Below, in pieces: positions 21,047 through 36,689 of a DNA stretch of 36,782 nt. Position numbers and translations under genes: made by a program. The DNA is from Phenylobacterium sp. (GTDB lineage Bacteria > Pseudomonadota > Alphaproteobacteria > Caulobacterales > Caulobacteraceae), in contig PLEH01000040.1 in NCBI GenBank assembly GCA_003136395.1, forward strand, positions 1 to 36,782, given 5' to 3'. Within the stretch, counting starts at the first letter, position 1; every line of letters starts with the position of its first letter. Below the pieces are notes generated by a model. It was not told the DNA's origin. It saw nothing but the letters and a program-made list of their open reading frames with translations, and searched no databases.

Positions 21047-21105
21047 CCTTCTCCCCTTGCGGGAGGGGTTATAGTGATCGCGGGATCGAGCGACACTTTT
21101 GACCA
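21047..21105 (+). repeat. Left arm of 59-bp inverted repeat flanking the island
   Basis: Matches the reverse complement of 36631-36689 at 52 of 59 positions. Five of the seven differences are in the loop of a CTCCC/GGGAG hairpin, which reads CTTGC here and GCAAG in the other. The inner part (CGGGATCGAGCGACACTTTTGACC) belongs to a four-copy repeat that resembles the multiple end repeats of IS21-type elements. Confidence 0.85.
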
Positions 21106-21370
21106 AGGCCCGGCCGTGCGCGGTGGCCCTGGACAGCAGGGGTCACCCGTCCGCAGCCCTATTTGAGATTGGGTGGAAAATTGTAATCGCGGAAACGAGC
21201 GACATTTTTGACCAGGCAAGGCCGTTCGCGGTGTGGTTCAGCGTCCAAAGGCGCAGAGCTTGATCATATGCAGGGGCATAGAAAAATCAGTCACTTAGCA
21301 GGTGCCGCCTGCTACGTTTGTGTGCGCCGTGTGTAGCAGTTTTGGGAGCTTTGAACAGGTGCAGAGCGCC
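21106..21370. other. Intergenic island edge
   Basis: No gene can be supported. It holds the spacer between the two left repeat copies, the second copy, and AT-richer DNA to the end of the frameshifted gene. Composition changes from core-like GC to lower GC after about 21240. Confidence 0.5.
21185..21214 (+). repeat. Second, inner copy of the island-edge repeat
   Basis: AATCGCGGAAACGAGCGACA then TTTTTGACCAG; the similarity to the first copy continues on (AAGGCCGTTCGCGGTG versus CCGGCCGTGCGCGGTG). Same orientation, 109 bp further in. Confidence 0.8.
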
Positions 21371-21599
21371 TCAATTGAGTTCCACCAGTTGGTCCAACTC
21401 GCCAACCTCAACACTCGGAACCGAGGCGAACCCACACACAAGGCCAGGGTTCGCGAGAAGGGAATGGCTCCCCCTAACACACGTCAGCCCCATGTTTCCA
21501 GCAATGCCTGCCAATCGAATGTATCGGTCCATGAACATTCGATTGTCGTCTCGCAACATCTTGGCATCCTCAAGCATGCCGCCAGCGCTACCTCGGCTG
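21371..21599 (-). pseudogene. Out-of-frame 3' part of the ImmA/IrrE partner gene
   Basis: In the second reading frame the minus strand continues as FFSRGSAGGMLEDAKMLRDD, then NRMFMDRYIRLAGIAGNMGL and a tail ending ELDQLVELN with a stop at 21371. This is more protein-like than the in-frame end of the upstream frame. The two frames join if one T is added to the T5 run (plus-strand A5 at 21600-21604). The combined product would be about 158 aa. Confidence 0.5.
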
Positions 21600-21846
21600 A
21601 AAAATTTGTATGCTTAGAACCCAAAAATGCGGACTTGGCCTCTTTGACCAAATGACCACAGATTGAGCATTTTTTGAACATGTCTTTCTCATCATCTGAG
21701 AAAAACACACGCCCCTCTGAAAGGAGATGAGCTAATATCTGCGGCATTATATTAGCCTTTGTCGGCGGTATGCCATCGCCGGACAGAATCGCATATACGG
21801 CCTTGTACTCCATCAGAAATTTTAGCTCAGGTTCCTGAGTCTGCAA
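21484..21846 (-). CDS. Unknown protein downstream of ImmA/IrrE gene, probably frameshifted
   Basis: Frame of 120 aa from TTG 21846 (ATG 21810 gives 108 aa). I do not recognise the family. It is helical at the start (ILSGDGIPPTKANIMPQILAHLL), then FFSDDEKDMFKKCSICGHLV with a Cys-x2-Cys pair that could bind zinc. After residue about 82 the frame turns into an unlikely Cys/Trp-rich end while the neighbouring frame continues with good helix-forming sequence (see the adjoining entry). It begins one base after the stop of the ImmA/IrrE-XRE gene, so the two form an operon. Partners of ImmA/IrrE-XRE proteins are often toxins, phage-response effectors or repressors; here that is only inference. Confidence 0.5.
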   Translation of the reverse strand: MQTQEPELKFLMEYKAVYAILSGDGIPPTKANIMPQILAHLLSEGRVFFSDDEKDMFKKCSICGHLVKEAKSAFLGSKHTNFSAEVALAACLRMPRCCETTIECSWTDTFDWQALLETWG

Positions 21847-21847
21847 C

Positions 21848-23068
21848 TCAGTAGCCCTGAACTCTATTAGCTGCGATGCTAAAAGTCCTAAGTCTTGTTT
21901 TTCCTCTCGCGTTTAAAATGCGCGCTACATCAACATCATCAATCAAGCCCTGCAGGTGTGCAGTCTTGACCAATTCAACGGCGAGATAGCCGTTGTCCAT
22001 TATGACGTTGAGAGCGTATTGGCCACCTTCCCTCTCATCCTCTAGGTCAAGCTCGTCATCGTTATCACTCGCAGGCGGATCTTCAGCGCCGTATGTGGTA
22101 ACTAGATGAACTTGTTCTCGCCACGCCTGATACTGGCTGGGAGTAATCCGCCTGCTCCGCAACAATCGATATGCCATTGCACCCTGACTCAGTAGGGTCA
22201 GGGCCGACATGAGTTTTATACTGGCGATATGATCGCTAGACGAAAAGTATCTATCTGCCAGGTCAGATAGATCACCCTCCGACAGTATAAGGTTCGAGGC
22301 GAATTTATTGCAGGCCCGCTCAAGATCATTGTTGAGAACGAAAGGATCTGAAATACCTCCGGCGCGCAGAACGAAATGCGCCAACTCGTGGAGAAGAGTA
22401 AATATTTTAGCTTTCGGACTAAACGTCTTTCGATTAATAAATATTAATGAAAGACTAGTGTTCAATTCGGTAAAGAATCCTCTGTAGTCCTCGGGGGGAA
22501 CGTCGCCAACGAACGTGAAAAGCCCGGCATTTTCTGCCCTATATCTTAGTGAATGCAGAGATCGTTCAGGCTCAGACGCATGGACGCTAATATTGCCTTG
22601 GAATAGCGCGGTGCGAACATCCTCGACAACTCTATCCAGATCAACGATTCTCTTAATATGCGGCAATGATAGCTTGGGCTTCCACTCCAGCGCCCTCGCT
22701 AGACCGGCAATGGTCTCGGCCTTAGCCTTGCTCTCGAAATACGCTCGCGTGCCGCGTGGTGAAATCTCTGCTGGAGCTTCATGCTCCTTGCGGAGGTCGA
22801 GGGCCATTGGTTCTAAGTTGGGACGCGCCGGTGAGGCGAGACGGTAGACCGACGCACCGTAGATCGCGCTCAGGCGCGCCCATTGCTTGGTGGTTGGGCT
22901 CGCCGCACCCGCCTCGAATTTCTCAATCTGGGTTGGTCGGGTGCCTACTTCAGCGGCCACCTCTTCCAGCGAGAGGTTCCGGACTTCGCGGGCATAAGCT
23001 AAGCTATTCACGAATGGCCGCGCCCCCCACGCCCGATACAGTGACGTTAGCAAACCTCTCTGGAGCAT
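21848..23068 (-). CDS. XRE-HTH plus ImmA/IrrE family metallopeptidase
   Basis: 406 aa from ATG 23068; TTG 23083 and GTG 23011 (which would give a typical NSLAYAREVRNLSLEE start) are alternatives. Residues about 22-75 are an XRE helix-turn-helix (LSLEEVAAEVGTRPTQIEKFEAG). Residues about 190-260 are the ImmA/IrrE domain with the zinc site HELAH (227-231) and later conserved RACNKFASNLILSE. In the family, the peptidase cuts a repressor after stress or phage signals (ImmA on ImmR, IrrE on DdrO); some are antitoxin-like. Codon and base use is clearly more AT-rich than in the core genes, which suggests transfer. C-terminal acidic stretch DNDDELDLEDEREGG is unusual. Confidence 0.85.
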   Translation of the reverse strand: MLQRGLLTSLYRAWGARPFVNSLAYAREVRNLSLEEVAAEVGTRPTQIEKFEAGAASPTTKQWARLSAIYGASVYRLASPARPNLEPMALDLRKEHEAPAEISPRGTRAYFESKAKAETIAGLARALEWKPKLSLPHIKRIVDLDRVVEDVRTALFQGNISVHASEPERSLHSLRYRAENAGLFTFVGDVPPEDYRGFFTELNTSLSLIFINRKTFSPKAKIFTLLHELAHFVLRAGGISDPFVLNNDLERACNKFASNLILSEGDLSDLADRYFSSSDHIASIKLMSALTLLSQGAMAYRLLRSRRITPSQYQAWREQVHLVTTYGAEDPPASDNDDELDLEDEREGGQYALNVIMDNGYLAVELVKTAHLQGLIDDVDVARILNARGKTRLRTFSIAANRVQGY

Positions 23069-23481
23069 TCCAGACGATTGCAACCCTGGGATTTGCGATG
23101 GGGGTATTCAAAGCGCCACTCTCTACGCTCCTGTCAGCTACGGAAGGGCGTCTTAGCCGGGAGGAAATCGTTCTTGATGGTCGCCAAGACGAGTCGGCCA
23201 CCGCCCGACGCGGCGAACTCGCTTCCGTGCGGCGCGATCTGAACTCCGCTCGAAAGCGCATGCACCGACCTGCCTCGGTTCTCGAGCTTCTAATATGGGT
23301 TGCGTCGCTTGGTAGCGCGACTCTGCTCGTTTGGGCCAGCGTGCGCCCAAATGTTGTTGTTTCCTTTTCGACCGGCCTCGCTTTGATCCTTATACCTGTG
23401 GCCACGGCGGCGGCGGCCACTATCGCGATTTGGGTCATGGCCGCACACGAGCTTCGGGACATCAACGCCAAGCTCAAATAG
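23014..23481 (+). CDS. Small membrane protein, unknown function
   Basis: 155 aa from ATG 23014. N-terminus is moderately hydrophobic (AFQTIATLGFAMGVFKAPL), the middle is charged and helical (RREL/RRDLNSARKRMHRP), and the C-terminal third has two membrane helices (LLIWVASLGSATLLVWASV and FSTGLALILIPVATAAAATIAIWVM). I do not recognise a family. It is divergent from and overlaps the proposed 5' end of the ImmA/IrrE gene by about 55 bp; if the latter starts at GTG 23011 the two start codons are two bases apart. Paired membrane protein and XRE/peptidase would fit an abortive or stress-response module, but this is inference. Confidence 0.55.
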   Translation: MAAPPTPDTVTLANLSGAFQTIATLGFAMGVFKAPLSTLLSATEGRLSREEIVLDGRQDESATARRGELASVRRDLNSARKRMHRPASVLELLIWVASLGSATLLVWASVRPNVVVSFSTGLALILIPVATAAAATIAIWVMAAHELRDINAKLK

Positions 23482-23678: not shown

Positions 23679-23912
23679 CACCACCCTCCTGTTAGGCTTT
23701 TGTTAGCCATAACGTGGGGTCTGATGGTGAAGGACCCGTTTAGGAAAGAAGCGGGCCCCCACTAACCCGCGCGGTAAAGCTCATAAGTTGTGGGTTCTGA
23801 GCCCCACTTCGTCGAGGATTCAGCCGGGCCGGGCCTCGTGGGAAGCGGCTAACTTCTGAGCCAGGCGGAGTTGCGCGCCCTAATTATTGATCCCGCCAGT
23901 TAGCGAGGACTT

Positions 23913-26900
23913 TCAGGTGCCGGCATGACTGCGTCTGAGGGAAGCGGAGATGGTCCGGGTGCGGGCCAACACCTTTGCCAGATTGGACGCATCCACCCCA
24001 AGCTCCGCCGCCAACGCCGGCACCCCGATTTCTGTCGCACGGCTCCGCATCCCGTCCAGCAGCGCGGCGTCTTCCTTTGCACGCACACCGTCAGCCGCCC
24101 AAAGCCGCTCCGCACCGTTACGCATCCTGACAAGGTCGCGGTCTGCGATGGTTGAATCCGGCTCCAGCGCCCGCGTGATTGTGTTGTCGGACACGCCGGC
24201 CGCCTTACGGAAGGCCCGCACTCCGAAACGCTCCTTGGTCTCCCGAACCGCCTCTATGGCCGCAGCCCGGTGCGATGGTGTTAGCCCGTAAGGCACCGCC
24301 GGATCATCCTCAGCGCCGATTGACCCGTCTTCCTCGAAACGGTCGCCCTCCTTGCCGATGTTCCACACAAGGTCGGCCAGGATGTGCCGGCGCCTGGTGG
24401 GGCCGCGCCGTGTCCGCCCGCCGTCCAGAAACTTGGACTCCGAGTGAACCGGGTATGTCCGCAACACCTCCGCATAGGTCCTCAGCCATGCCGGCTCGAC
24501 GTCCTCGCCTGTCTCGCGATCCCAGATGTGATCGATGGTTGAGAGGTCCTTCGTGTACGGCGCAACCGGCTTGGGCGGTCGCTGTCGCGGATCAAACAGC
24601 GCGCCGTTGTCCTCGACCGCCCGCTCGTGCGGCTTCTTGGACTGGAACCAGAGCAGGAAATTGAACGGCCGCACCTGGCTCGCATAGTGCCGGTGCTTGT
24701 TGAACGGCGCGAACCAGCTGAGCACGGTCGGCGTCGTAGCCGCATAACGGCTGGCCGCCGGCTTCGCCAACTCCGGACGCCAGACAAATTCCGCGTCGTC
24801 GTCATCGGCGCGGCCGGCCGCAGCGGTGATCATCTGTTCCCAGAAATGCTCCTGCCAGAGGTGCACGCCCGTATCGCGTTCCGGCTCGTCAGGATCGTCT
24901 GGACCGTATGGCGGCAATAGGTGCCCCAGCCCGTGCGCGGAGGCCTTGCGGATGATCGGTCGGCCGTCATCGCCCCAGTTGAAGAGGGCGTAGCGCTTGG
25001 CGGAAATGGCGTAGCAGTAGAGGTCCCGCGGCTCGCCGGTCTCGCGGTCGGTGTTCTGATCCTCGAACTCCAGAATCGAGCCCGGCTTCTCGTACGGGTT
25101 CAGGGCTGAGAACCAGGCGCACACCCGTTCCACCCGCTTCCGGAATTCGGTCTGCGCCATGCCGGCTGGCCGCGCAAACGCCATGCTGTCGGTGTCGCAG
25201 AACGCCCAATCCAAACCCTCGTCAAGCAACAGGCGCTCTGTGATCGCAAGCATCAGCCGCGCCGAGCCGGTGATCAGGGTCGCCAGCAGCGGGTGGAAGT
25301 GGCTGCCCGGCGTCTCTGTCTGGCGTGGCGATGTCGGGAACGAGCCATCCACACCGTACGCAGTCACCGGCTCGTCCTGGCGGTCGGCGTCCTCAACGTT
25401 GAGTTCAATGAAGATGCCGTAGCTCGTGGCGTTGGCCAGAATCTTGAGCGCCAGCTGTTCGGCGTCCAGGCGGTCAATCTCCGACTTGGCTGCGCCTGAC
25501 TTCTTGGCTGCCGACAGCCTTCCCTTCACCTCGCGACGAAGGTCGATCACCCGCTTGTAGAAATTGTCGGTGGCGGGATCGACGCCATAGGCCGAATTGC
25601 CGGCGATGTTCACGGGCGCCAGTCCGGTATGCACATCCTTCGGTACGAACCGGATCGCCTGCACGACCTCCGGCGATTTGCCGGTCAACAGCTTTGACGC
25701 GATGCAGTCCGGCAGCGTCATCCACACCGGCTGTTCGCTGGTGAGGTAGTTGAGGCCGATGGTCGTGCTTGGGTCGGCGCCGTACCGGCCGCCGGGTCCG
25801 TCGCTGTAGCGCGCCCGTACGGGGAAGATGTCGGCTGCCGGCTTCACCAGCACCAGCGCATGGAAGTCGCGCCAGGTCTCGGGCCGTTGCAGCGCCGCCA
25901 GGTCGACGCCGGCAAGCAACGCCCGTGCGCCGTCCGTCCAGTCCTCACGCGTCATGCCGTCCGACACGACATAGCGCCACAGGTCCATCAGCGTGCAGAC
26001 CGACGGGTACATGCTGGCGAAGTCGCAATAGAGGGTCGGCACGATCTCGCGGCGCCGGTGCACCTCGGAGCGCCCGCCGAAGTACGAACTCATGATCGCG
26101 CCGATGATCTCCGGCGGGAACTCCGGCTGCACCGCGCGCCAGGGCCGGATGTTCATGGCGTTGAGGTAGGCCTTGCCGAGCCCGGCCTCGGAATAGATCC
26201 GCGTCGGCGGAGTGGCCAGCTGGTGCTGGCGGTAACGGGAGATCAGCGCCTCGTAACACTCCCACGTGACCTGAGTGTCCTGCACCGCGTAGGCGATCAG
26301 TTCGGGGTCGAGGTCACGGCCGAAGTCGCTGAATGTCCCTTTGCGGCCAACGCCAAGGAAACCCGCCAAGCGGTCCAGGGTGAAGGAATTGCTCGTGAGC
26401 GCCGCGGCCAGGGTGCGCAGGTCGAGGAAGAACCCGGGCTTTTTGACGACTTCCTCCTCGCCTTCGTCACCCATCACATAGACCGGGTCATCCCAAACCT
26501 GAGTGAAGTTGATGAAAGCGGAGCGCCGCGACAGGTGCCGCACGCGGATATTCGGTCGGCCCTCAACGTCAGACAGCTTGAACGTGAACCCGCCGACCAT
26601 GGACCGATCTTTGGTCCCGTCTTTGCGGACGATGGTGCGCGCCGACCCGTGTTTGATGGCCAGCCTGGAAATGTCGAAAGGCAGGTTGAACCCAACGATC
26701 GAGGCGTCGGTCTTGTAGGCGGCGTCAAACAGGATCGCCTCGCGAAACTCGGTCACGGTGATCAGCCGGCTGCCATGCTTCACCGCCTCGCGCTGGAGCA
26801 CCGCTAGCTCAAAATCCCGCACCTCCTCCGGATTGTAGAATATGCCTTTGTCCCGAAGCCGGCCCCGCTGGCGCAGCTGGTAAGTGCCGATGCGCATGTT

Positions 26901-27083
26901 CTGCGCCGCGTCCGGCCAGGTCTCGGTATCGAATACGAGCACCCAGTCCGAGGGTCTTGGATATCCCCGACGCTTCGGTGTGGGCTCGTCGGTGGGCACG
27001 TAGGCCCGCAGGAAGATCGAGCGCGGCTCCGCTTCCGGAACCGCGCCCGTAGGGTCGTCAGACGAAGCTGAGGTCGTCGCCAT
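23913..27083 (-). CDS. polB: Family B DNA polymerase with 3'-5' exonuclease and C-terminal HTH region
   Basis: 1056 aa from ATG 27083, which has AAGGA five bases upstream (ATG 27089 also possible). Numbers below count from 27089. Exonuclease motifs: ExoI FDTET (Asp54, Glu56), ExoII GFNLPFD (Asn135, Asp139), ExoIII YAVQD (Tyr267, Asp271). Polymerase motifs: A DFASMYPS (356-363), B K549-x3-N-x3-YG (ALKILANATSYG), C CDTDS (Asp632, Asp634). All catalytic residues are present. Residues about 640-940 are thumb and unknown sequence. The last 110 residues look like two helix-turn-helix units (FRKAAGVSDNTITRAL, LAAELGVDASNLAKVL), an unusual fusion. The start overlaps the HNH-like gene by 26 bp. In casposons this enzyme copies the element. 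Confidence 0.92.
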   Translation of the reverse strand: MATTSASSDDPTGAVPEAEPRSIFLRAYVPTDEPTPKRRGYPRPSDWVLVFDTETWPDAAQNMRIGTYQLRQRGRLRDKGIFYNPEEVRDFELAVLQREAVKHGSRLITVTEFREAILFDAAYKTDASIVGFNLPFDISRLAIKHGSARTIVRKDGTKDRSMVGGFTFKLSDVEGRPNIRVRHLSRRSAFINFTQVWDDPVYVMGDEGEEEVVKKPGFFLDLRTLAAALTSNSFTLDRLAGFLGVGRKGTFSDFGRDLDPELIAYAVQDTQVTWECYEALISRYRQHQLATPPTRIYSEAGLGKAYLNAMNIRPWRAVQPEFPPEIIGAIMSSYFGGRSEVHRRREIVPTLYCDFASMYPSVCTLMDLWRYVVSDGMTREDWTDGARALLAGVDLAALQRPETWRDFHALVLVKPAADIFPVRARYSDGPGGRYGADPSTTIGLNYLTSEQPVWMTLPDCIASKLLTGKSPEVVQAIRFVPKDVHTGLAPVNIAGNSAYGVDPATDNFYKRVIDLRREVKGRLSAAKKSGAAKSEIDRLDAEQLALKILANATSYGIFIELNVEDADRQDEPVTAYGVDGSFPTSPRQTETPGSHFHPLLATLITGSARLMLAITERLLLDEGLDWAFCDTDSMAFARPAGMAQTEFRKRVERVCAWFSALNPYEKPGSILEFEDQNTDRETGEPRDLYCYAISAKRYALFNWGDDGRPIIRKASAHGLGHLLPPYGPDDPDEPERDTGVHLWQEHFWEQMITAAAGRADDDDAEFVWRPELAKPAASRYAATTPTVLSWFAPFNKHRHYASQVRPFNFLLWFQSKKPHERAVEDNGALFDPRQRPPKPVAPYTKDLSTIDHIWDRETGEDVEPAWLRTYAEVLRTYPVHSESKFLDGGRTRRGPTRRRHILADLVWNIGKEGDRFEEDGSIGAEDDPAVPYGLTPSHRAAAIEAVRETKERFGVRAFRKAAGVSDNTITRALEPDSTIADRDLVRMRNGAERLWAADGVRAKEDAALLDGMRSRATEIGVPALAAELGVDASNLAKVLARTRTISASLRRSHAGT

Positions 27084-27444
27084 ACCCATCCTTGGCGAGG
27101 TTGATCAGGAAGTCGCCGAACCCGCGTAGCGTGGACATCAGGATTCCGAAATACCCGGCCATGCTCAAAAGCCATCGGCCGATGACCTCGAAGACATTTC
27201 GGGGGTTCGGTGACGGCGATGGCTCCGCCCGCTGGAGGCAATCGCGCAACGCCTTGCAGTTCATGCAAACCAGCAGTGTCGTGTCGTCGGAATTTTTTCC
27301 TGCCGGGTGCTCGAAGGTGAGGCACAACACATCATCCTGGGGACAGCAGACACAGACATGGACAAAGTGCCCGGCGGCTTCGAATTTTTGGCGCTTCTTC
27401 GCCCGCTCGGCGTCGCAGTGCAGGTCGTAATCAAGGTCGGTCAT
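27058..27444 (-). CDS. HNH-like zinc-binding protein, possibly inactive
   Basis: 128 aa. Residues 29-66 have the shape of the HNH family with HHIAGR: Cys31-x2-Cys34, then LTFEHPAGKNSDD (His46) and Cys60-x2-Cys63. The final HNH His, usually right after the second Cys pair, is Lys64, and no Asn is seen before the second pair, so nuclease activity is doubtful while zinc binding looks intact. Residues about 84-118 form one or two hydrophobic helices (VIGRWLLSMAGYFGILMSTL) also present, from memory, in long-tailed HHIAGR proteins. Its end overlaps the start of the polymerase gene and its start is 10 bp after the HTH gene stop: one operon. Casposons usually carry an HNH nuclease here. Confidence 0.65.
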   Translation of the reverse strand: MTDLDYDLHCDAERAKKRQKFEAAGHFVHVCVCCPQDDVLCLTFEHPAGKNSDDTTLLVCMNCKALRDCLQRAEPSPSPNPRNVFEVIGRWLLSMAGYFGILMSTLRGFGDFLINLAKDGYGDDLSFV

Positions 27445-27454
27445 AGCCGCATCC

Positions 27455-28078
27455 CTATGAGATGATTTTGTAGAGCTCGGGGAACGAGAGTTCCCCGGCG
27501 GCGTCGAGTTCGTAGAGGGCGTCCGGGTCGGTCTCGAAGGGGTGTAGCCGCCCCTTGATGTCCGTCACACCGGCGTCCTCGAAGGGTCTGAGGACCTTGC
27601 GTCGGCCGGTGAATAGGAACCGGTTTACGGCGCGCATGTAGTCCGACGCACGCGTCGCTTCGGCCGGGGTGAGCCAGGGGTGCGCGATGGCGCCTTCCGA
27701 ATAGACTGGAAATTGCCGCGGACGGTTGTCGGTGATCACCCACTTGCCGCCCTTCCGTTCGGCCTGGACGTTCTCTTTGAGGTAACGCCGCAGCGTTTCC
27801 TCCCGGAGCCCGAATTCCCGCGCCGCGGTCCGCAGGTAAGACCCGCGGGCGATCTTCCGGACCGCGAGTTCGAATGGGCCTTTGCCGGCCGCGAGGCGGG
27901 GTCCGGGCGGCTTTGGCCGTTCGCCCGCCCTGGCGTGGCCGCGGGCTTGCGAGCGGCTCTTGCCCGCCTCCAGGCCCTTGGCGACCCGTCTGGCGTACTC
28001 GATTTTGAAGTCTCGGCCGGGCCGGGCCCTAGCTTTTGGTCGCCGGCCTTTTCCGACGCCTGTTGTTCGATTGGTCAT
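27455..28078 (-). CDS. HTH DNA-binding protein, first gene of the PolB operon
   Basis: 207 aa from ATG 28078 with GGAGGGG about six bases upstream; the frame extends to 28159 without support. The N-terminal 75 residues are very basic and contain a YARRVAKGLEAGKSRSQARGHA segment that I know from phage/plasmid proteins. Residues about 78-115 form a helix-turn-helix (YLRTAAREFGLREETLRRYL). The C-terminal half (about 120-205) is a mixed fold with FLFTGRRKVLRPFEDAGVTD. A DNA-binding regulator or end-binding protein is likely. The RBS lies in a hairpin loop (see 28081-28107), which may be its own operator. Confidence 0.65.
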   Translation of the reverse strand: MTNRTTGVGKGRRPKARARPGRDFKIEYARRVAKGLEAGKSRSQARGHARAGERPKPPGPRLAAGKGPFELAVRKIARGSYLRTAAREFGLREETLRRYLKENVQAERKGGKWVITDNRPRQFPVYSEGAIAHPWLTPAEATRASDYMRAVNRFLFTGRRKVLRPFEDAGVTDIKGRLHPFETDPDALYELDAAGELSFPELYKIIS

Positions 28079-28080
28079 TT

Positions 28081-28107
28081 CGCGCTCCCCTCCTTTTCGG
28101 GAGCGCG
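28081..28107 (-). promoter_or_regulatory. Perfect 9-bp palindrome with the Shine-Dalgarno sequence in its loop
   Basis: On the minus strand CGCGCTCCC, loop GAAAAGGAG, GGGAGCGCG, then AA and the ATG of the HTH gene. It lies between the divergent operons (93-bp gap). It could be an operator for the HTH protein or an mRNA hairpin presenting AGGAG in the loop. Confidence 0.7.
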
Positions 28108-28171
28108 CGGACTCCTGACCACCCCGGAGCGCAAAATCTGTGTTGGCCGGCCTGAGCACCTCGGTGGGAAA

Positions 28172-29215
28172 ATGACCAAGGACGAGCTCGTCGCCCTAGT
28201 GCACGAACGGACCGCCAAACCGCTTGGCTGGGAGTTCAATGCCGGGACGCTGGATGACCTGATCAAGCACGGTCTGGTGCGCCCGACCCCACGAAACGGG
28301 AACGATGGCCGCCGGCCCATCTATCGTTTCACCTGGCGCGACGTTCACCGCATCACATTCCTGGCGGCAATTCAGGCCAGGGGCGTGCGGGGCCGCGACG
28401 CGTTGCGGCTTCGACTCTTTGTCGCCGGCTGCAAACTTCCGCTGTGGGAAGTCAAAGCGGCTTTGCTCAATGAATATCGCGATGTGGTTGCGTCTCTGAA
28501 CAATCAGACCCGCACGGCATATCTCGACAACCGAAAACCCCTGACGCCGACCAAGCTCGCATCCATCACACGCGAACTCGGGCGTGCAGATCCGATCCTG
28601 CGGGACGCAGGGTTGGAGACGCCACCGGAGGCCATGATCCAATTCATCCGTGATGCTCGGCAGGAGCCATTGCCGACTGGCATTGGAGATATTTCCCCAG
28701 AGGCCTTTGCCCGCCTAGCCTCCGGCAAAGCATCGATTGCCGATCTGGTGCCAATGGCCGGCAATATCTTTCCAGGCATGTTTCAGATGGACGCTGCGCC
28801 CGGCGATGATCCGGGCCAGATGGATTCTGTCGATGGGTTGATTAGGAATACCGACGACCGCGCGTGGGAAGATGCGCTGGCCCAATTTCGCAATATGCTG
28901 ACCCATCTCGCGATGCATGGGGCGGGAAATTTGATGCCTGATGGCGGCGGGCCGGCCGGCGTCCGTCGCGTGGTCATCAGAACTATTAAGCGGTCGCCGC
29001 AATTCCTCGCCTTACACTTGGTTCTGGCACTCCGAATGGCGGTGGCCGACCCCGGAAAACCGTCGATTGAGCAATTGGAATTTATGAATTGGCTCATGAA
29101 GGAGCCCGGTCGAATTCTAAAGATCCAGGCGACCAATTCACCCGATGAACTATCGGTGATTACCCGCAATTATTTTGATGAATTCAAATTGATAGGGGAT
29201 TCGCGGCGCCATTAA
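28172..29215 (+). CDS. Winged-HTH-like protein of unknown function, upstream of cas1
   Basis: 347 aa from ATG 28172, with GGTGGGAAA before it; an open frame continues upstream to 27680 but overlaps the HTH gene and is not protein-like. Residues about 15-75 resemble a MerR-type winged HTH: LDDLIKHGLVRPTP, then RPIYRFTWRDVHRITFLAAIQARG, with the wing between. The rest is helical and I do not recognise it (ALLNEYRDVVASLNNQTRTAY, FARLASGKASIADLVPMAG, AQFRNMLTHLAMHG). Its stop is 36 bp before cas1, so the two are co-transcribed. Codon choice is less GC-rich toward the end. It could be the integrase's regulator or a target-site factor; that is a guess from position. Confidence 0.6.
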   Translation: MTKDELVALVHERTAKPLGWEFNAGTLDDLIKHGLVRPTPRNGNDGRRPIYRFTWRDVHRITFLAAIQARGVRGRDALRLRLFVAGCKLPLWEVKAALLNEYRDVVASLNNQTRTAYLDNRKPLTPTKLASITRELGRADPILRDAGLETPPEAMIQFIRDARQEPLPTGIGDISPEAFARLASGKASIADLVPMAGNIFPGMFQMDAAPGDDPGQMDSVDGLIRNTDDRAWEDALAQFRNMLTHLAMHGAGNLMPDGGGPAGVRRVVIRTIKRSPQFLALHLVLALRMAVADPGKPSIEQLEFMNWLMKEPGRILKIQATNSPDELSVITRNYFDEFKLIGDSRRH

Positions 29216-29231
29216 ATCAATTAGAATTCGT

Positions 29232-29244
29232 CCCTCACTGAGGG
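29232..29244 (+). promoter_or_regulatory. Hairpin covering the cas1 ribosome-binding site
   Basis: CCCTC-ACT-GAGGG; the right arm GAGGG is the Shine-Dalgarno sequence, seven bases before ATG 29252. It would reduce cas1 translation unless opened, for example by ribosomes leaving the upstream gene. Confidence 0.5.
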
Positions 29245-29251
29245 TCGATAG

Positions 29252-30316
29252 ATGCTTGTCGCCGCCGAACAATTGCCCGTGGATACGTGGTCGGCCCGAA
29301 ATTCATATTGGTCCGACACCGGCCGTGATCAAAAGCCTGCCCGCCGCAAACGTCATCGCCCTATTGAGCCACTAGTATTGTGCGGCCACGGCATGTCCTT
29401 GCGGGTCGATGGCGGGACGCTCTTGGTCCGGAATGGCCGGACCCATTACCCCCACGAGCCGGAGACCTATCGGTTCTTTCCAGGCGGAAAGGCATTGCCG
29501 CCGCGGATCATCGTCCTCGATGGCTCGGGTTCGATCTCGTTTGATGTCCTGGGATGGCTAGCCGAGCAAGGCGTCCCGTTAATCCGGATCAATTGGCGTG
29601 GAGAGGTCGTGACCGTGGCCGGCGGCAGCGGTTACGGCGCCGACGGGAAAAACCTTCAATGGCAATTGGAAACGCGGGCAGACCCGGTGCGCCGCGTGCT
29701 GTTCTCGACCAGCCTGATCCGACAAAAGCTACAGGCCAGCGTCACCACGCTGACCGAATGCATTGCGGATTCACCGGCGCGGCGGGTGGCGCTGTCGAAC
29801 GCGGCAGCAGCCCTTGAACAGATCGACCGTTCTCCGCCGCGCGATCTTGTCCAGCTTCGCGGCATTGAGGCTTTTGCAGCAGCCGCATACTTCGCCGCGT
29901 GGCGTGGTCTTGAGATGTCGATCAAGCCAACCGTACGGAAGCATGTGCCGGAAGAATGGCTTGCCTTCGATGCGCGGGCGTCGCTCGCCAACGGCAAGCG
30001 GCCCAAGAACAAGCGTGCCTCCCACCCTCTGAACGCCATGCTGAACTATGCGTATGGCGTTCTACAGGCCCAGCTACAGGTGCGCGCCGTGTCTGAGGGT
30101 TTTGATCCGACAGTCGGGATCATGCACCACGGCTATCGGGACAGCCCTGCGTATGTCTTCGATCTTATGGAGCCGGAGCGGCCGAAGGTGGACGCAGCGC
30201 TGTTGCGCTTCGTGACAGGCCACGAATTCAGCGCCGCGGATTTCACGTTGCGTTCGGATGGTGTCGTGAGGCTATCGCCGCAGTTGGCGCGGCGGGTTTG
30301 CGGTTTGGTTGTCTAG
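29252..30316 (+). CDS. cas1: Cas1 family integrase (solo Cas1 / casposase-like)
   Basis: 354 aa. An extra basic N-terminal segment of about 40 residues (QKPARRKRHRP) precedes the Cas1 beta domain (LVLCGHGMSLRVDGGTLLV, PPRIIVLDGSGSISFDVLGWLAEQGV). The helical catalytic domain has Glu206 (LRGIEAFAAAAYF), His292/His293 (PTVGIMHHGY) and Asp304 and Glu307 (FDLMEPERP), matching the Cas1 metal site. Conserved HPLNAMLNYAYGVL is also there. In CRISPR systems Cas1 with Cas2 inserts spacers; in casposons Cas1 alone inserts the transposon. No cas2 or array is nearby, while a polymerase and HTH genes are, so a casposase role is more likely. Domains for HTH or Cas2 are not fused to it. Confidence 0.93.
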   Translation: MLVAAEQLPVDTWSARNSYWSDTGRDQKPARRKRHRPIEPLVLCGHGMSLRVDGGTLLVRNGRTHYPHEPETYRFFPGGKALPPRIIVLDGSGSISFDVLGWLAEQGVPLIRINWRGEVVTVAGGSGYGADGKNLQWQLETRADPVRRVLFSTSLIRQKLQASVTTLTECIADSPARRVALSNAAAALEQIDRSPPRDLVQLRGIEAFAAAAYFAAWRGLEMSIKPTVRKHVPEEWLAFDARASLANGKRPKNKRASHPLNAMLNYAYGVLQAQLQVRAVSEGFDPTVGIMHHGYRDSPAYVFDLMEPERPKVDAALLRFVTGHEFSAADFTLRSDGVVRLSPQLARRVCGLVV

Positions 30317-30340
30317 GTCGGGCTTCGGCCATCAGCCGAA

Positions 30341-30529: not shown

Positions 30530-31207
30530 TCAGGCGGTGGCAGTCGCGAACTTTCGACGCGAGCGCATCACCGCGCCGAGTCCGCCGAAGCCGACCAGCA
30601 TCAGAGCCCAGGTGGCGGGTTCGGGCACGCCGCCGGCACCCTGGTTGATCACGATGTGATCGGTAAACGAATCAGCACCGGTTGTTCCCACCGTCCAGTC
30701 GACCACGTAGGTGCTGTCGAGGGTCGTGTCGTAGTTGATGTCGCCGACGTTGAAGGAGGAGCTACCGTTCAGAAACCCGAAGGCGAGACGCTCGCTGTTC
30801 TGCTCGCCGGCGGTGCCACTCAGATTATTGTCCGGAATCGCGAGCGGATCAAAGCTGGCAGTGCCGCCCCTGGTCAGATTGGTGATGGTCATCAGAGACG
30901 TCAGACCGGTAAGCGAGGTGGTGCCGGGGTTGAAAGAGAAGTCCAGGCTGACGTCGGTACCCAGCGCGATGGTGTAGATATCGCCGACGGAAGCGACCGG
31001 ACCCAGCAGGTACGGCCTGGCCCGAAGTCCGAGCTCGATGCCGTCCACCGTGTTCACGGCGAAGTCGCCGTTGCCGTTGCCAGTCCCGAAGTAGACGCCG
31101 GGGGAAGCGAGATCCTGATTGAAGAGCTCGGTGGCTTGGGCGGCGCCTGCGAGCAGTGCGGCTACCGAAATGGTGGCCGCAAGCAGCGGAATACGGTAAT
31201 TCTTCAT
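30530..31207 (-). CDS. PEPxxWA-CTERM sorting domain protein
   Basis: 225 aa from ATG 31207; the longer frame to 31273 adds an unlikely leader. Signal peptide 1-25 (IPLLAATISVAALLAGAAQA). The mature part is Ser/Thr/Gly/Asn-rich beta sequence without Cys. The last 30 residues are the sorting signal: VPEPATWALMLVGFGGLGAV, then MRSRRK. Proteins with this tail are cut and handled by an exosortase and end on the surface or in the matrix; none is in this window. AAGAGG lies about nine bases before the start. It is unrelated in function to the Cas1 cluster as far as can be seen. Confidence 0.85.
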   Translation of the reverse strand: MKNYRIPLLAATISVAALLAGAAQATELFNQDLASPGVYFGTGNGNGDFAVNTVDGIELGLRARPYLLGPVASVGDIYTIALGTDVSLDFSFNPGTTSLTGLTSLMTITNLTRGGTASFDPLAIPDNNLSGTAGEQNSERLAFGFLNGSSSFNVGDINYDTTLDSTYVVDWTVGTTGADSFTDHIVINQGAGGVPEPATWALMLVGFGGLGAVMRSRRKFATATA

Positions 31208-31896
31208 CTTGAACAGCCTCTTTGTCATGCGAAGGTTCATATCAGAACGCCCCCTGCCGTCGGCTCCAAACACATTCGTTTAGTTTACCGCAGCAATAAT
31301 TCCCCGAAACTCAGCTATTGATAGATTTAGAAGACATCTCTTCTGCTTCCGAGATGGCCATCACTTCACCTGAGAAAGCCTAGAACATGCCGGTGTGAGC
31401 CAAATGCGGACTCACTTTTAGATCTATTCTGAAGTGTGAAACTGTGAGACCCAGTGGCCCAAGGCCTCGCCTATATACGAGCATTATACAAACATTAATC
31501 TATCCGCCCGGCCATGGAAGAGCTTTCCCCTAAGAGGCGAGTTGCCGAGCCCGCCGCCGAAGGGCGTCCACACACGGACTTCTGATCGCCCGCGCCTTAT
31601 GCCCCTCGAATGACCGACAGGACCGCACTCATTTGTCGGCGGACGCCAACGCGGGAGCCGCCGCCTTGATCCCGCGGGTTCAGCTGGACACCGCCGACAT
31701 ACCCGGGGGCGGCCAACTGCGCCTCATGCGGCGCGGTGCTGAGTTCTCAATCAGGTCGGGCGCCATCGAGCTTATGAACAGTCGCCTACATGGACTTTCT
31801 AAGGTCCGCTTTGGGTCGAAAGCGGACATTGGCTCGATGCCGGAAAGCGGACTCCGCGAACGACGCGAGTGGATGGGTTGCGGACATTGGCCCGCT
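31208..31896. other. Intergenic gap with promoter region and palindromes
   Basis: 689 bp without a gene I can support. 31290-31510 is AT-rich (TATATACGAGCATTATAC near 31471) and likely holds the promoter of the PEP-CTERM gene and older debris. The open frames at 31633-31980 run through palindromic repeats and are rejected. Confidence 0.5.
31801..31893. repeat. Palindrome cluster 2
   Basis: GGTCCGCTTTGGGTCGAAAG continuing CGGACATTGG, then CGGAAAGCGGACTCCGCG and a partial TGCGGACATTGGCCCGC. Lies just past the 3' end of the secreted protein gene at 31897. Confidence 0.75.
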
Positions 31897-32355
31897 TCAG
31901 ATGCCGTCCTCCCAGCCGGACCCCTCATCGCAGAAATACTCATTCCGGGTAGGCCCTTGTTCGTTGAAGCGGATCGTTGAGGCCATGCCGTTGCGCATTA
32001 CTGTCAGCCGGTCTGAGCCAAGCACGACGCGTCCGTCGTCGGCGCCACGCCCGAGCGTGCACGGGTAGCTGCCCATGAACTTGCTGCCATTCTTGATGAT
32101 GGCAATGCGTTGCTGGCCATGCAGCGACACGGGGTTGGCGAAAACCAGATAGTAAATCCCGTACGCCGAGTTGAGGACGCGTATGGTCCCAAGCCGCCGG
32201 ATCGTCGTGTTGGGCAATCGCCCCTGAGGGTCGTGCTTCGCGAACACTGATCTTGGAGAAGCCGGGCGTGTGTCGGCCGCCGCAGTAGCCGACGCACTGA
32301 CTGACGCCAGGAAGACCATTGCGACAATGGCCGAGAAATTTGCGCTTTGCCGCAT
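31897..32355 (-). CDS. Secreted protein of unknown function
   Basis: 152 aa, ATG 32355. Signal peptide about 1-26 (ANFSAIVAMVFLASVSASAT). The mature part has a region like a small beta domain (LGTIRVLNSAYGIYYLVFAN, RIAIIKNGSKFMGSY) and one Cys pair far apart (SYPCTLG, EYFCDEG), which may form a disulfide in the periplasm. I do not recognise a family. No clear SD is present. It is flanked on both sides by the GTCCGCT palindrome. Confidence 0.7.
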   Translation of the reverse strand: MRQSANFSAIVAMVFLASVSASATAAADTRPASPRSVFAKHDPQGRLPNTTIRRLGTIRVLNSAYGIYYLVFANPVSLHGQQRIAIIKNGSKFMGSYPCTLGRGADDGRVVLGSDRLTVMRNGMASTIRFNEQGPTRNEYFCDEGSGWEDGI

Positions 32356-32440: not shown

Positions 32441-32767
32441 CTATCGCTTAGCGACTCCTCGGGAGGGGTCCGCCTTGATGATCTGCCTCAGGCGGAACGT
32501 GATGTGCGTTCGAATGGCTTGCGTGTGGTCGGGTTTGAGGGCATCCGGCCGCTCAATCGGAGGAACAGGAAACGGGATCATTGGTCCGCATCGCTCGACC
32601 GCGCGGTCAACCATCGTATCGAACGGCTCTGTCTTGAACTGGGTCGCAACGCCCTGGAGGCAGTCGCCGACCTCTGTGTACAGGTCGGGGCCGCCAGGGC
32701 CTGTCGGCGATGCCCCCTGAGCCAAGATCGAGATCGCTGCCGCCAACGCCAGGGCTGCTGAGCTCAC
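32441..32767 (-). CDS. Small secreted protein, unknown function
   Basis: 108 aa from GTG 32767; AAGGAGG lies seven bases upstream, a very good ribosome site. Signal peptide about 1-20 (SSAALALAAAISILAQGASP). The mature part has two Cys (GDCLQGV, ERCGPMI), probably disulfide-bonded, and a C-terminal amphipathic helix (AIRTHITFRLRQIIKAD). I recognise no family. Likely periplasmic. It lies alone between two palindrome clusters on the same strand as its neighbours. Confidence 0.7.
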   Translation of the reverse strand: MSSAALALAAAISILAQGASPTGPGGPDLYTEVGDCLQGVATQFKTEPFDTMVDRAVERCGPMIPFPVPPIERPDALKPDHTQAIRTHITFRLRQIIKADPSRGVAKR

Positions 32768-32938: not shown

Positions 32939-34402
32939 TCAGCGCTTGATCAGCTTCGGATCCAGCCGGACCGCCACCGCGTCGTCCGCATCTGCCCGAT
33001 GCAGGTCACGCTTCAGGCCGTAGGCCATACTGCGGAAGTAGAAGGCCAAGGCGTCGTCGCTCTTGAGCGCGATGGCCTGGGTCAAATCGGCGACCGCGGC
33101 ATCGCCATTGCGCTTCTCGAGGTTGACCAACCCGCGGCCGCGCCACGCCTCTTCGTCCGACGGGTTGAGCTTGATCGCCCGGGCATAGTCAGCAAACGCC
33201 CCGTCGTAGTCGGCCTTGGCGTGGCGCAGGAAGCCGCGGTGGCGGTAGGCGGGTCCGCTGTCGGGCCGAAGTCGGATCACGTCGCTGAAGTCGGCGATGG
33301 CACGATCCGTCTCGCCGCTGGCCTCCAGCGCCTGGCCACGGTTCATGTAGGCGGCGGCGAGCCTGGGATCCAACGCCACCGCCTTGCCAAGGTCGGCAAT
33401 CGCGTCCGCCCAGTCGGCCTTGGCCAGATAGGCGGCTCCGCGATTGTTGTAGGCGTCGCGGAAGTTGGGCTGCAGCTCAATGGCGCGGTTATAGTCGGCG
33501 ATGGCGAGGTCGCGTTCGCCGCGGGCGAAGTAGGTGTCGCCGCGCGCCTTGATGGTCTCCGCCGCAGTCGGGTTGAGGGCGATGGCGCGGCCGAACTCGG
33601 CGAGGGCTTCGCCCGTCCGGCCGCTCGCCTGCAAGGAGAGGCCTCGATCATGATGAGCGCCGGCATTGTTGGGGTCGAGGCGGAGGGCCTCGGCGGCGTC
33701 CGCTTCAGCGCGCGCCTCGTCGCCCTTCTTGTGCCAGGCCATGCCGCGGTCGCGCCATGCGGTTGGGTCAACTGGGTTGAGCGCAATGGCGGTGGAGAAA
33801 TCGGCGATGGCGCGATCCTGATCGCCCTGGTTGCCGTAGAGCGCACCGCGGCTGACGAAGATCGCCGGCTCCTTGGGCGAGAAACGCGCAGCCTCCGTCA
33901 AGTCGGCCAGGGCGTCGGAGTGATCGCCGGCCTTCAGCGCGAGGGCTGCCCGGTTCAGGTAGGCGACGCCTAGCGTCGGATCGACCGCGAGCGCCGCGCT
34001 GTAGTCGGCGAGTGCATGGGCATCATCACCCTTGGCCGCGTAGGCGATGCCGCGGTTTACGTAGGTCTTGGCGAAGACGATTGGGCTCTCCGCCGCGGAC
34101 TCGCCCAGACGGATCGCCGCATCGTAGTCGGCCATGGCGTGGTCGAGGTCGCCGCGGCTCTGATAGGCGAAGCCTCGGTTGCGGAGCGCGATGGCGAGGT
34201 CGCCGGGGCGCGAGGCCTTGTCCTGAATGATGTGGGTGCAACCCGGCACGGCCTTTTCGGGCTTCCCCGAACTGCAGGCCGTGCGGTCTGGGCTGGCGAC
34301 AACCCGCTCACCCTCCTGGGCGCGGGCCGAGCCGATCGCCAAGGCCAGAACCAGAGCGGGGAGAGCTCCGCGCAGAGCTACATTCCGGATCGTTGGACGC
34401 AC
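32939..34402 (-). CDS. Exported TPR repeat protein
   Basis: About 487 aa from GTG 34402, chosen because it gives a normal signal peptide (RPTIRNVALRG, then ALPALVLALAIGSARA); GTG 34411 and TTG 34447 are alternatives. From about residue 65 to the end there are roughly eleven or twelve 34-residue TPR units of the type NRGxAYxxxGDxDxAIADYxxAIxLxP, almost without spacers. A Cys pair (TACSSGKPEKAVPGCT) lies before the first repeat. TPR arrays bind peptides or proteins; the export signal puts this one in the periplasm. The repeats are very even, which suggests recent internal duplication. No partner can be named. Confidence 0.85.
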   Translation of the reverse strand: MRPTIRNVALRGALPALVLALAIGSARAQEGERVVASPDRTACSSGKPEKAVPGCTHIIQDKASRPGDLAIALRNRGFAYQSRGDLDHAMADYDAAIRLGESAAESPIVFAKTYVNRGIAYAAKGDDAHALADYSAALAVDPTLGVAYLNRAALALKAGDHSDALADLTEAARFSPKEPAIFVSRGALYGNQGDQDRAIADFSTAIALNPVDPTAWRDRGMAWHKKGDEARAEADAAEALRLDPNNAGAHHDRGLSLQASGRTGEALAEFGRAIALNPTAAETIKARGDTYFARGERDLAIADYNRAIELQPNFRDAYNNRGAAYLAKADWADAIADLGKAVALDPRLAAAYMNRGQALEASGETDRAIADFSDVIRLRPDSGPAYRHRGFLRHAKADYDGAFADYARAIKLNPSDEEAWRGRGLVNLEKRNGDAAVADLTQAIALKSDDALAFYFRSMAYGLKRDLHRADADDAVAVRLDPKLIKR

Positions 34403-34515
34403 CCTATACACCCGACAAGATCGCGCAGCCTTACCGCCGCAAACCAAGGAGCAGCCTAGTCAGTAGGCAAACTCTGTCCACCTCGACACGAGGGTCGCCC
34501 GATCAACCCCCGAAG

Positions 34516-34668: not shown

Positions 34669-35427
34669 TCACCCGCGCGACGCGGTCGCTCGCCGCCGCC
34701 AAGCCTCCGCTGAGGTCGCATAGGGCTTGCCAGCAATATAAGCCCCCCAAGCCTGCTGGAGCGTCTGACCGAGGGTCTCGCGAAGAAGCGCCTGGCCGTC
34801 TTCACCCGCGCGCAAGGTCGCGTTAACGCGGGTGATGGTTCCCGGATGGCCCTGCTCGACCCAATCCAGGAAGCCCGCCGACGCCTGATAACCATCATGC
34901 CAGGTTGCGCCGTCTGGCCGGAAAGCGCGGCCTGGGTCGTCGGGGATTAGGACGTAGTAGCGCATGTAGTCGGCAATCCCCTCGACCAGCCAGCCTGCGG
35001 CATGAGGATAGCGTTGCACCACGTGGACCATCTCATGCGCAATCATCGCGAGGGCGTCGGGGTCACGTAGCCGGGCGAGGAGACCGCGGGCGTCGACCTC
35101 GATCACCGACTCGTGGGTTAGGGCCGGCGCCCCCTTGATCTTGATGTCGTTGAATTCGATGGTGATCTGATCGACTGTCACAAATCCTGGCGAGGCCAGT
35201 CGGGTGGTGATCGTGCGCCACCAGCCATCCGCCAAGCGCGTGAGAACGCTGCTCCAGGCCTCAAGCGCCTTGCGCTCGGCGCTGCTGAATTGCCGGCCGT
35301 AGGCGAAGGTCAGGAGCGGAGGATTTGATTGACCCCGGCTGGCCGTCGCGCTCGCCAGACAGCCCAAGCCGCCGGCCATGAATGCGCGGCGGCGCGCTCT
35401 CAGCACGCGTTCCACGCGTCTAGGCAA
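34669..35427 (-). CDS. Basic secretory protein-type metallopeptidase (peptidase of plants and bacteria family)
   Basis: 252 aa if TTG 35427 is the start; GTG 35415 is an alternative that keeps the signal. The N-terminus has RARRRAFMAGGLGCLASATA, a possible Tat signal. The zinc site is HEMVH (131-135) followed by GWLVEGIADYMRYY (Glu149), the BSP-family arrangement in which HExxH and a downstream EG(I/L)ADY act together. The family is known from plant defence proteins and bacteria; substrates are mostly unknown. A small membrane protein gene ends nine bases upstream, so the two are an operon. It should act outside the cytoplasm. Confidence 0.82.
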   Translation of the reverse strand: MPRRVERVLRARRRAFMAGGLGCLASATASRGQSNPPLLTFAYGRQFSSAERKALEAWSSVLTRLADGWWRTITTRLASPGFVTVDQITIEFNDIKIKGAPALTHESVIEVDARGLLARLRDPDALAMIAHEMVHVVQRYPHAAGWLVEGIADYMRYYVLIPDDPGRAFRPDGATWHDGYQASAGFLDWVEQGHPGTITRVNATLRAGEDGQALLRETLGQTLQQAWGAYIAGKPYATSAEAWRRRATASRG

Positions 35428-36543: not shown

Positions 36544-36571
36544 GGTCAGAAGTGTCGCTCGATCCCGCGAC
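36544..36571 (-). repeat. Inner right copy of the island-edge repeat
   Basis: GGTCAGAAGTGTCGCTCGAT then CCCGCGAC; inverse of the left copy with the GGGATC core. 36399-36782 contains no gene I can support, only repeats. Confidence 0.8.
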
Positions 36572-36630: not shown

Positions 36631-36689
36631 TGGTCAAAAGTGTCGCTCGTTTCCGCGATCACTATAACCCCTCCCCTTGCGGGAGAAGG
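36631..36689 (-). repeat. Right arm of the 59-bp inverted repeat flanking the island
   Basis: Reverse complement of 21047-21105 with seven differences (52/59). It includes TGGTCAAAAGTGTCGCTCGT, TTCCGCGATCACTATAACCC and CTCCCCTTGCGGGAGAAGG. Confidence 0.85.

What the first reader, a model, noticed from the sequence alone, without database searches (positions are those of the whole stretch)
23913..30316. Bacterial casposon-like locus: solo Cas1 with family B DNA polymerase, HNH-like and HTH proteins
Seen: an intact Cas1 (Glu206, His292/293, Asp304, Glu307) and an intact PolB (Exo I-III and Pol A, B, C motifs) 2.2 kb apart in divergent operons, together with an HNH-shaped zinc protein, an HTH protein and a winged-HTH-like protein. 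No cas2, no effector, no repeat-spacer array. Known: Cas1 + PolB + HNH + HTH defines casposons, mostly archaeal; from memory a few bacterial ones are reported, including in alphaproteobacteria. Inference: this is a casposon relative or a domesticated Cas1-PolB system in Caulobacterales, with an unusual divergent layout, a basic N-terminal extension on Cas1 and a PolB with C-terminal HTHs.
Basis: partly seen in the sequence, partly recalled or inferred. Interest (0 to 1): 0.95.

Follow-up and report, generated by a model that had tools for sequence, protein, structure and literature searches.

The report
Transposon that lands in DNA hairpins
This stretch holds a complete 15.6-kb casposon, a transposon that likely moves by using Cas1, the enzyme with which CRISPR systems store memories; it and most of 29 complete relatives sit in the middle of short DNA stem-loops, so the shape of the target would be what guides insertion.

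Summary
Cas1, PolB, an HNH-like protein and two HTH proteins are the core of a complete element with ends: 40-bp terminal inverted repeats at 21066-21105 and 36631-36670 (2 mismatches) and a 15-bp target duplication, CTCCCCTTGCGGGAG, at 21051-21065 and 36671-36685. The target is a stem-loop after truA; the joined flanks match, with no gap at the junction, an intact stem-loop after truA in one relative. No Cas2 was found in the draft genome. So it is a casposon with intact ends, and its divergent layout is the rule (45 of 51 loci). New here: in 30 complete elements the 14-15 bp duplication is centred on the dyad of a hairpin (6.3 of 8 arm pairs at the exact centre, at most 3.9 at other shifts; 13 of 30 perfect, background 0.03-0.1%), with at least 28 different sequences. 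Two of the 30, and one more locus, lie next to recA instead. Bacterial casposons, and a hint of palindromic targets, are in print; REP, terminator or recA targeting did not appear in my searches. The window's HNH lacks its last catalytic His; no activity was tested.

The parts
21051..21065 (.). Left copy of the 15-bp target site duplication CTCCCCTTGCGGGAG (centre of the stem-loop; 8 nt after the truA stop)
   Evidence: Identical to 36671-36685; 27 of 27 positions of duplication plus repeat tip match, shuffled control 21
21066..21105 (+). Left terminal inverted repeat, tip GGGTTATAGTGAT
   Evidence: a 19-nt pattern of the tip is found at the two ends only in the 4.9-Mb draft at up to 3 mismatches; the reversed control pattern has 1 match
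21088..21104 (+). Repeat GAGCGACACTTTTGACC, first left copy (inside the terminal repeat)
   Evidence: 4 matches in window, 0.06 expected
21197..21213 (+). Second left copy of the same repeat (subterminal)
21484..21846 (-). Cargo ORF, 120 aa, unknown
   Evidence: no family
21848..23083 (-). Cargo: HTH plus IrrE-like metalloprotease regulator
   Evidence: Peptidase_M78 7.2e-10, HTH_3 1.5e-6; PADLOC RmrA models 1.1e-12; phrog_2439 1e-35
23913..27089 (-). PolB, family B DNA polymerase with 3'-5' exonuclease
   Evidence: homologue on the opposite strand upstream of Cas1 in 45 of 51 loci; only one in the own genome
27058..27444 (-). HNH-like zinc protein with the last HNH His replaced by Lys
   Evidence: 25 of 26 copies keep that His
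27455..28078 (-). Conserved HTH protein with basic N-terminus
   Evidence: HTH_psq 0.012, below its cut-off; homologue in 44 of the 45 loci with PolB
28172..29215 (+). Winged-HTH protein with helical C-terminus, fast evolving
   Evidence: 8 proteins matched, the window's own included; model with a wHTH-like N-terminus at pLDDT 81-89 over residues 1-100, mean 65.6
29252..30316 (+). Cas1 (casposase)
30530..31273 (-). Cargo: PEP-CTERM protein
   Evidence: PEPxxWA-CTERM 9.2e-12
31897..32355 (-). Cargo ORF, 152 aa, unknown
32441..32767 (-). Cargo ORF, 108 aa, unknown
32939..34447 (-). Cargo: TPR protein
   Evidence: TPR_1 2.1e-65
34669..35427 (-). Cargo: BSP-type peptidase
   Evidence: PF04450 5.9e-17
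35874..36398 (-). Cargo ORF, 174 aa, unknown
36544..36560 (-). Subterminal right copy of the 17-bp repeat
36632..36648 (-). Terminal right copy of the 17-bp repeat
36631..36670 (-). Right terminal inverted repeat
   Evidence: 2 mismatches to the left one
36671..36685 (.). Right copy of the 15-bp target site duplication

Best explanation
This is a complete casposon of 15.6 kb that sits in the centre of a stem-loop after truA, where its Cas1 likely inserted it. Shown: the ends, the duplication, the gene set, the empty site in one relative, and that 26 of 30 complete elements of this group have at least 5 of 8 arm pairs at the exact centre of the duplication (27 of 30 if the centre may move by half a base). 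Inferred: a Cas1 multimer (a tetramer, as solved for the M. mazei enzyme) holds the two transposon ends and joins their 3'-OH ends to the two strands 14-15 bp apart, symmetrically about the dyad of the hairpin; gap filling makes the duplication; PolB copies the element or repairs the gaps; the conserved HTH protein and the variable winged-HTH protein bind the ends or the target. Because the stem sequences differ between elements while the dyad position is constant, I take the target to be read mainly as a two-fold symmetric shape (inverted repeat or extruded hairpin), with a weak preference for pyrimidine-C at the border.
For: Ends and 15-bp duplication in the window, tip found nowhere else in the draft genome; joined flanks align with no gap at the junction to the stem-loop after truA in same-genus genome G027 (truA by NCBIfam 2.9e-51); GC falls from 0.74 to 0.51 between the 1.5-kb windows left and right of 21000. 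Of 43 distinct loci searched for ends, 31 gave a pair at a deficit of 3 or less against shuffled bests of -4 to -9; I counted 30 and set L009 aside. 60 of 60 tips, aligned by their tip motif, begin GGG, consensus GGGGTATAGTGAT. Arm complementarity 0.63-0.93 at 3-10 nt from the dyad, null about 0.27; 6.30 of 8 pairs at the exact centre, at most 3.93 at shifts of up to 6 bases; 13 of 30 with 8 of 8 pairs (all 13 at the exact centre) against 0.026% (all flank) or 0.10% (outside long ORFs). Duplications of 14 bp in 16 and 15 bp in 14; 29 distinct strings, 28 if L017's boundary is moved. No Cas2.
Against: No activity was tested. Three of the 30 have 3 or fewer of 8 pairs: L007 and L023 at an AT-rich site next to recA, which is no hairpin, and L017, where a G-run probably shifts the called boundary. 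12 of 43 loci gave no pair of ends, five of them (L016, L025, L010, L032, L141) with under 1.5 kb of flank on one side. The first two positions of the duplication are mostly C or T, so part of the symmetry could come from a short border motif. The window's contig ends 97 bp after the right duplication, inside a repeat family, so the right flank cannot be checked. Only one of 29 relatives looked at has the matching empty site. The window's HNH is probably not catalytic. L018 has Cas1 between two ends but no PolB hit.
Confidence: 0.86

Rival explanations
1. A casposon whose hairpin preference is indirect: Cas1 reads only a short pyrimidine-C motif on both strands 14-15 bp apart, and GC-rich terminators and REP-like repeats are simply where such symmetric motifs are common.
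For: Position 1 of the duplication is C or T in 27 of 30 and position 2 is C in 22 of 30; for A. boonei the border bases C+1 and C+2 matter (PMC6614799, passages).
Against: Pairing goes on outside the duplication (3.47 of 5 pairs at 8-12 nt from the dyad, null 1.35), where a border motif would not reach; 13 of 30 have perfect 8-bp arms; the tandem junction in L028 is GATAAGGTGCTTATC, without a CC/GG border.
Confidence: 0.3
2. The window's copy is a fossil or depends on another casposon: real ends, but no longer autonomous.
For: HNH His replaced by Lys; 6.3 kb of cargo between Cas1 and the right end carries repeats that, among 60 relatives, match genomes of the same genus only; the same genome holds a truncated second Cas1 without PolB.
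Against: Cas1 and PolB intact, terminal repeats 38 of 40 identical and duplication 15 of 15; an HNH homologue is detected in only 26 of 51 loci, so it may be dispensable.
Confidence: 0.3
3. A domesticated Cas1-PolB locus serving the host (defence or genome maintenance).
For: Gene set and layout kept across orders.
Against: Intact ends and duplications at different sites; 22 of 398 genomes of the window's order (own included), 5 of 396 of a second order (centre chosen for having one), 4 of 385 of the class; two copies in G925, G869 and G1049.
Confidence: 0.03
4. A stray CRISPR adaptation gene.
For: Cas1 models of CRISPR types match.
Against: No Cas2 in the draft genome; no array in the part of the window scanned; 45 Cas1s of this group form one clade apart from 9 others, among them 7 Cas1s of the class that I take as CRISPR Cas1 (99/98; 3 of the 7 checked, best model Cas4g/Cas1g).
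Confidence: 0.01

Closest known systems
Family 3 casposons, HenMar-C1 of Henriciella marina (Alphaproteobacteria), PMC4046053
   Same: Cas1 without extra domains, PolB; TIRs and TSDs in casposons in general; HNH and conserved HTH genes in three of the four family 3 elements; bacterial host of the same class (parts 1 and 2 of the Results and passages)
   Different: HenMar-C1 carries a Cas4-SF1 helicase fusion, a DNA methyltransferase and a kinase; its target site was not visible to me (supplement not held); its sequence was not obtained, so clade membership is untested
Family 2 casposons of A. boonei and M. mazei (PMC4046053, PMC6614799, PMC6977970, PMC10359463)
   Same: Five-gene core with two HTH proteins, 14-15 bp duplications, tandem insertions known; best solved relative of the window Cas1 is 6opm, E=7.8e-20 (that 6opm is the M. 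mazei casposase is recalled); a review says that the A. boonei enzyme recognises the palindromic repeat of the T-loop (PMC9939771, passage)
   Different: Their Cas1 has a C-terminal HTH; they go to 3' ends of tRNA genes using an upstream leader, here the duplicated segment itself is the centre of a hairpin
CRISPR Cas1-Cas2 adaptation
   Same: Cas1 chemistry; duplication of a short palindromic target
   Different: No Cas2, no array, no effector; the inserted DNA is a 15.6-kb element
Group IIC introns and IS elements that use terminators or REP repeats (recalled, no call)
   Same: Use of hairpins as landing sites
   Different: Unrelated enzymes

Membership tests
Casposon superfamily | Cas1 with all four catalytic residues | tested here: met
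   E206, H292, D304, E307 in 37 of 37
Casposon superfamily | No Cas2 or CRISPR association | tested here: met
   0 Cas2 matches at E<=1 in the own genome, 92% complete draft; only other Cas1 is a fragment; arrays sought in window 20000-36782 only
Casposon superfamily | Own family B DNA polymerase | tested here: met
   Motifs intact in 40-sequence alignment; Pfam below cut-off
Casposon superfamily | Terminal inverted repeats | tested here: met
   40 bp, 2 mismatches
Casposon superfamily | Target site duplication of 14-15 bp | tested here: met
   15 of 15
Casposon superfamily | Empty site in a relative | tested here: met
   G027, joined flanks with no gap at the junction; 1 of 29 relatives looked at
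Casposon superfamily | Transposition | not testable with these tools
   needs an experiment
Casposon family 2/3 gene core | Conserved HTH protein | tested here: inconclusive
   An HTH homologue is conserved in 44 of 45 loci with PolB, but it was not compared with the HTH of published casposons
Casposon family 2/3 gene core | HNH endonuclease | tested here: inconclusive
   Homologous to 25 HNH-like copies, but the last His is Lys in the window
Casposon family 3 | Cas1 in the family 3 clade | not tested
   Reference sequences not obtained; 6opm placement unresolved, long branch
CRISPR-Cas adaptation module | cas2 and repeat-spacer array | tested here: not met
   Cas2: whole draft; array: window 20000-36782 only
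Domesticated locus | Fixed site, ends lost | tested here: not met

The most novel reading that the evidence does not exclude
This casposase lineage is a shape-guided integrase: it recognises DNA stem-loops whatever their sequence, cuts symmetrically about the dyad and duplicates the hairpin, so tandem insertions build a row of short palindromic repeats with elements between them. That is the architecture of a CRISPR array, and it would make hairpin preference an ancestral property of Cas1 and the origin of the palindromes in CRISPR repeats.
Probability: 0.3. Interest if true: 0.92.

Novelty: new variant of a known kind. Interest (0 to 1): 0.74.

Why it matters
Casposons are the proposed ancestors of CRISPR adaptation (PMC4046053), and, as far as I recall, it is unclear where the palindromic CRISPR repeats came from. 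Here is a large bacterial group, with many elements whose ends are intact, whose natural target is itself a short palindrome that is duplicated on insertion. That makes the question testable with one enzyme and a set of hairpin targets.

Tried and rejected
Viral contigs: no match for patterns from the window's Cas1. Plasmids: Cas1 tblastn gave 24 records, none covering 80% of the query; 23 are annotated as cas1 or a CRISPR cas1 type, and one is an unannotated fragment in a Bradyrhizobium plasmid (32% of the query, 47% identity), perhaps a casposon remnant; PolB none. The phage collection was not searched. The first end search missed the window's ends because its right flank was cut at 4 kb. 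wHTH structure: mean pLDDT 65.6, Foldseek no match at E<=0.001, a MerR regulator (3gp4) at E 1.1. A second empty-site test, for element L148, failed: of six relatives looked at, those with the left gene lack the hairpin there; the same search showed that the hairpin is a repeat family in that genus. Terminator reading: only 3 of 30 sites (G473, L015, L139) have a run of five T after the hairpin, so I say stem-loop, not terminator, in general. Rows dropped: L009 by hand (deficit -2, 18-bp perfect repeat, but an imperfect duplication and no GGG at the found boundary); L134 (same contig as L019); from the 51 loci six loci on short contigs were left out (L018, L024, L027, L028, L033, L035), and L004, L006, L030 are there as G443, L129, G459. 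In one search, L027 and L035 show PolB and Cas1 in the usual layout, L028 and L033 show parts of PolB, L018 and L024 none. The 12 loci without ends: G414, L008, L021, L022, L016, L025, L010, L032, L135, L140, L141, L142; of these G414, L010, L025 and L032 show one tip. Shuffles keep base composition only.
Full report
What is there. Cas1 has its four catalytic residues in 37 of 37 aligned homologues, its best solved relative is chain 6opm_A at 7.8e-20 (that this is the M. mazei casposase is recalled), and 1278 proteins matched at E<=0.001 among 7997 scored candidates. PolB keeps its motifs across 40 aligned copies and is the only one of its kind in the own genome. The HNH-like protein aligns with 25 copies that end their motif in NCH, but the window has Lys there. 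The winged-HTH protein between the HTH gene and Cas1 has 8 matches, its own included; several other elements have divergent HTH-like proteins in that slot, by eye.

The element and its ends. Flanking the genes I found a 15-bp direct repeat, CTCCCCTTGCGGGAG (21051-21065, 36671-36685), directly outside inverted repeats that match at 38 of 40 positions (21066-21105, 36631-36670). A 19-nt pattern of the tip occurs at these two places only in the 4.9-Mb draft genome at up to 3 mismatches; the reversed control pattern has one match. A 17-bp repeat, GAGCGACACTTTTGACC, occurs twice at each end (4 matches, 0.06 expected), as expected for binding sites (inference). GC drops from 0.74 to 0.51 at the left end. 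The element is 15,605 bp.

The empty site. The duplicated segment begins 8 nt after the stop of truA (NCBIfam 2.9e-51). Joining the two flanks with one copy of the duplication gives CCTTCTCCCCTTGCGGGAGAAGG, a stem-loop, and the joined sequence aligns to G027 (same genus) from inside truA through the junction; the one 10-nt gap lies between truA and the stem-loop. I looked at 30 truA loci, the window's and 29 relatives' (one search matched 50 of 60 genomes): G027 alone has this stem-loop, several others have different ones there, by eye. In the own genome 12 places match the 23-nt stem-loop at up to 2 mismatches, control 0: it belongs to a repeat family.

The group. A scan of named genomes gave 34 loci, whole-genome searches gave more. 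Of 51 loci set side by side, 45 have PolB on the opposite strand upstream of Cas1; in the other six the contig ends within 4 kb upstream of Cas1; so the divergent layout is the rule. L018, outside that set, has Cas1 between two ends and no PolB hit. Distribution is patchy: 22 of 398 genomes of the window's order (own included), 5 of 396 of the order around G443 (itself chosen for having one), and in the class sample 11 of 385 at E<=1e-20, of which 4 reach 150 bits or more while the other 7 lie at 75-84 bits; three of those 7 were checked and fit CRISPR Cas4/Cas1 models best. G925, G869 and G1049 have two copies each. Viral contigs gave no match; plasmids gave no full-length copy.

Target choice. 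Of 43 distinct loci, 31 gave a duplication plus repeat tip at a deficit of 3 or less; shuffled flanks gave -4 to -9. I set L009 aside and counted 30. Tips, aligned by their motif: 60 of 60 start GGG, consensus GGGGTATAGTGAT. Around the centre of the duplication, bases at 3-10 nt pair in 63-93% of elements, those at 1-2 nt in 23% (a loop), null about 27%. The signal needs the exact centre: 6.30 of 8 pairs there, 3.93 at best at shifts up to 6 bases; allowing half a base, 27 of 30 have at least 5 pairs (background 11-12%) and 13 of 30 have all 8 (background 0.026% or 0.10%); at the fixed centre 26 of 30 have at least 5. The three low ones are L007, L023 and L017. Pairing continues outside the duplicated part (3.47 of 5 pairs, null 1.35), so the hairpin was there before. 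29 of the 30 duplications differ as strings; moving L017's boundary makes it equal to L014's, leaving 28. Some sites are related: flanks of L007 and L023 match, as do some of L131, L137, L143 and L144, so independent sites are fewer than 30.

Exceptions and extras. L007, L023 and G414 (right end only, not among the 30) lie directly upstream of recA (NCBIfam 3.6e-172, 2.6e-174 and 2e-174), near GAAC-N7-GAAC, which I recall as the SOS box of alphaproteobacteria. Back-to-back ends with one short repeat between them, that is tandem elements, occur in L028, in L099 (genome of L025) and beside L132, and less clearly twice in L018.

Tree. 45 Cas1s of this group form one clade (99/98) apart from 7 other Cas1s of the class, 4n06 and 6opm; the last two sit on long branches that meet, the root is only a midpoint, so the relation to archaeal casposases is open.

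Literature. Bacterial casposons including HenMar-C1, the five-gene core, TIRs and TSDs: PMC4046053 (outline, parts 1 and 2 of the Results and passages). Hickman and Dyda 2014, PMC4150552 (passages and main text section) say that aligned family 2 duplications hint at a palindromic target motif; a review (PMC9939771, passages) says that the A. boonei enzyme recognises the palindromic repeat of a tRNA T-loop and that tandem casposons are known in Methanosarcina. So palindromes near casposon targets are not a new idea; the precise centring on hairpins in a large bacterial group is what I add. A. boonei leader and border bases: PMC6614799 (passages). M. mazei tetramer on a symmetric 14-mer: PMC6977970 (passages). 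In vivo movement and tandems: PMC10359463 (passages). Searches for casposon with terminator, with repetitive extragenic palindromic, with recA and SOS, and with hairpin and insertion site gave no paper that by title or listed abstract start describes such targets (open-licence papers only); further listings were.

How it likely works. Shown: structure, sites, symmetry. Inferred: Cas1 joins the ends across the dyad; PolB makes or repairs the copy; HTH proteins recognise ends or target; the hairpin is read as a shape. The two-fold symmetric clamp solved for the M. mazei enzyme fits a two-fold symmetric target, but this is an argument, not a test.

Noticed in passing
L038 (G000:C6) 848-3680: A second, broken casposon remnant in the same genome: Cas1 residues 13-181 only, a MerR-like HTH protein (by eye), an HTH gene 64% identical over 173 aa to that of L009, an HNH-like ORF (by eye), no PolB and no ends found.
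   Followed up: partly
L007 19224, L023 15615, L084 13761: Three casposons of other lineages lie directly upstream of recA near a GAAC-N7-GAAC box: a second, site-specific target class.
   Followed up: partly
L028 8468-8482, L099 5587-5601, L132 15004-15017, L018 3161-3175 and about 10909-10924: Back-to-back casposon ends with a single short repeat between them: tandem elements.
   Followed up: partly
30400-36540: The right arm carries short repeats that match other places in the own genome and, among 60 relatives, genomes of the same genus only, plus PEP-CTERM, TPR and peptidase genes: cargo that looks taken from a host of this genus.
   Followed up: partly
21848-23083: Cargo HTH plus IrrE-like gene matching PADLOC RmrA models; could be a regulator or a defence part.
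   Followed up: no
13322-13420: Bacterial small SRP RNA (Rfam RF00169, 62.1 bits).
   Followed up: no
L075 (G199), L115 (G997), L122 (G1003), L124 (G1067): Cas1 copies with inner stop codons in the aligned region: decaying elements.
   Followed up: no
L149 and G1097, genus of G1097: The target stem-loop of element L148 belongs to a roughly 100-bp repeat family with dozens of matches across the genus.
   Followed up: partly
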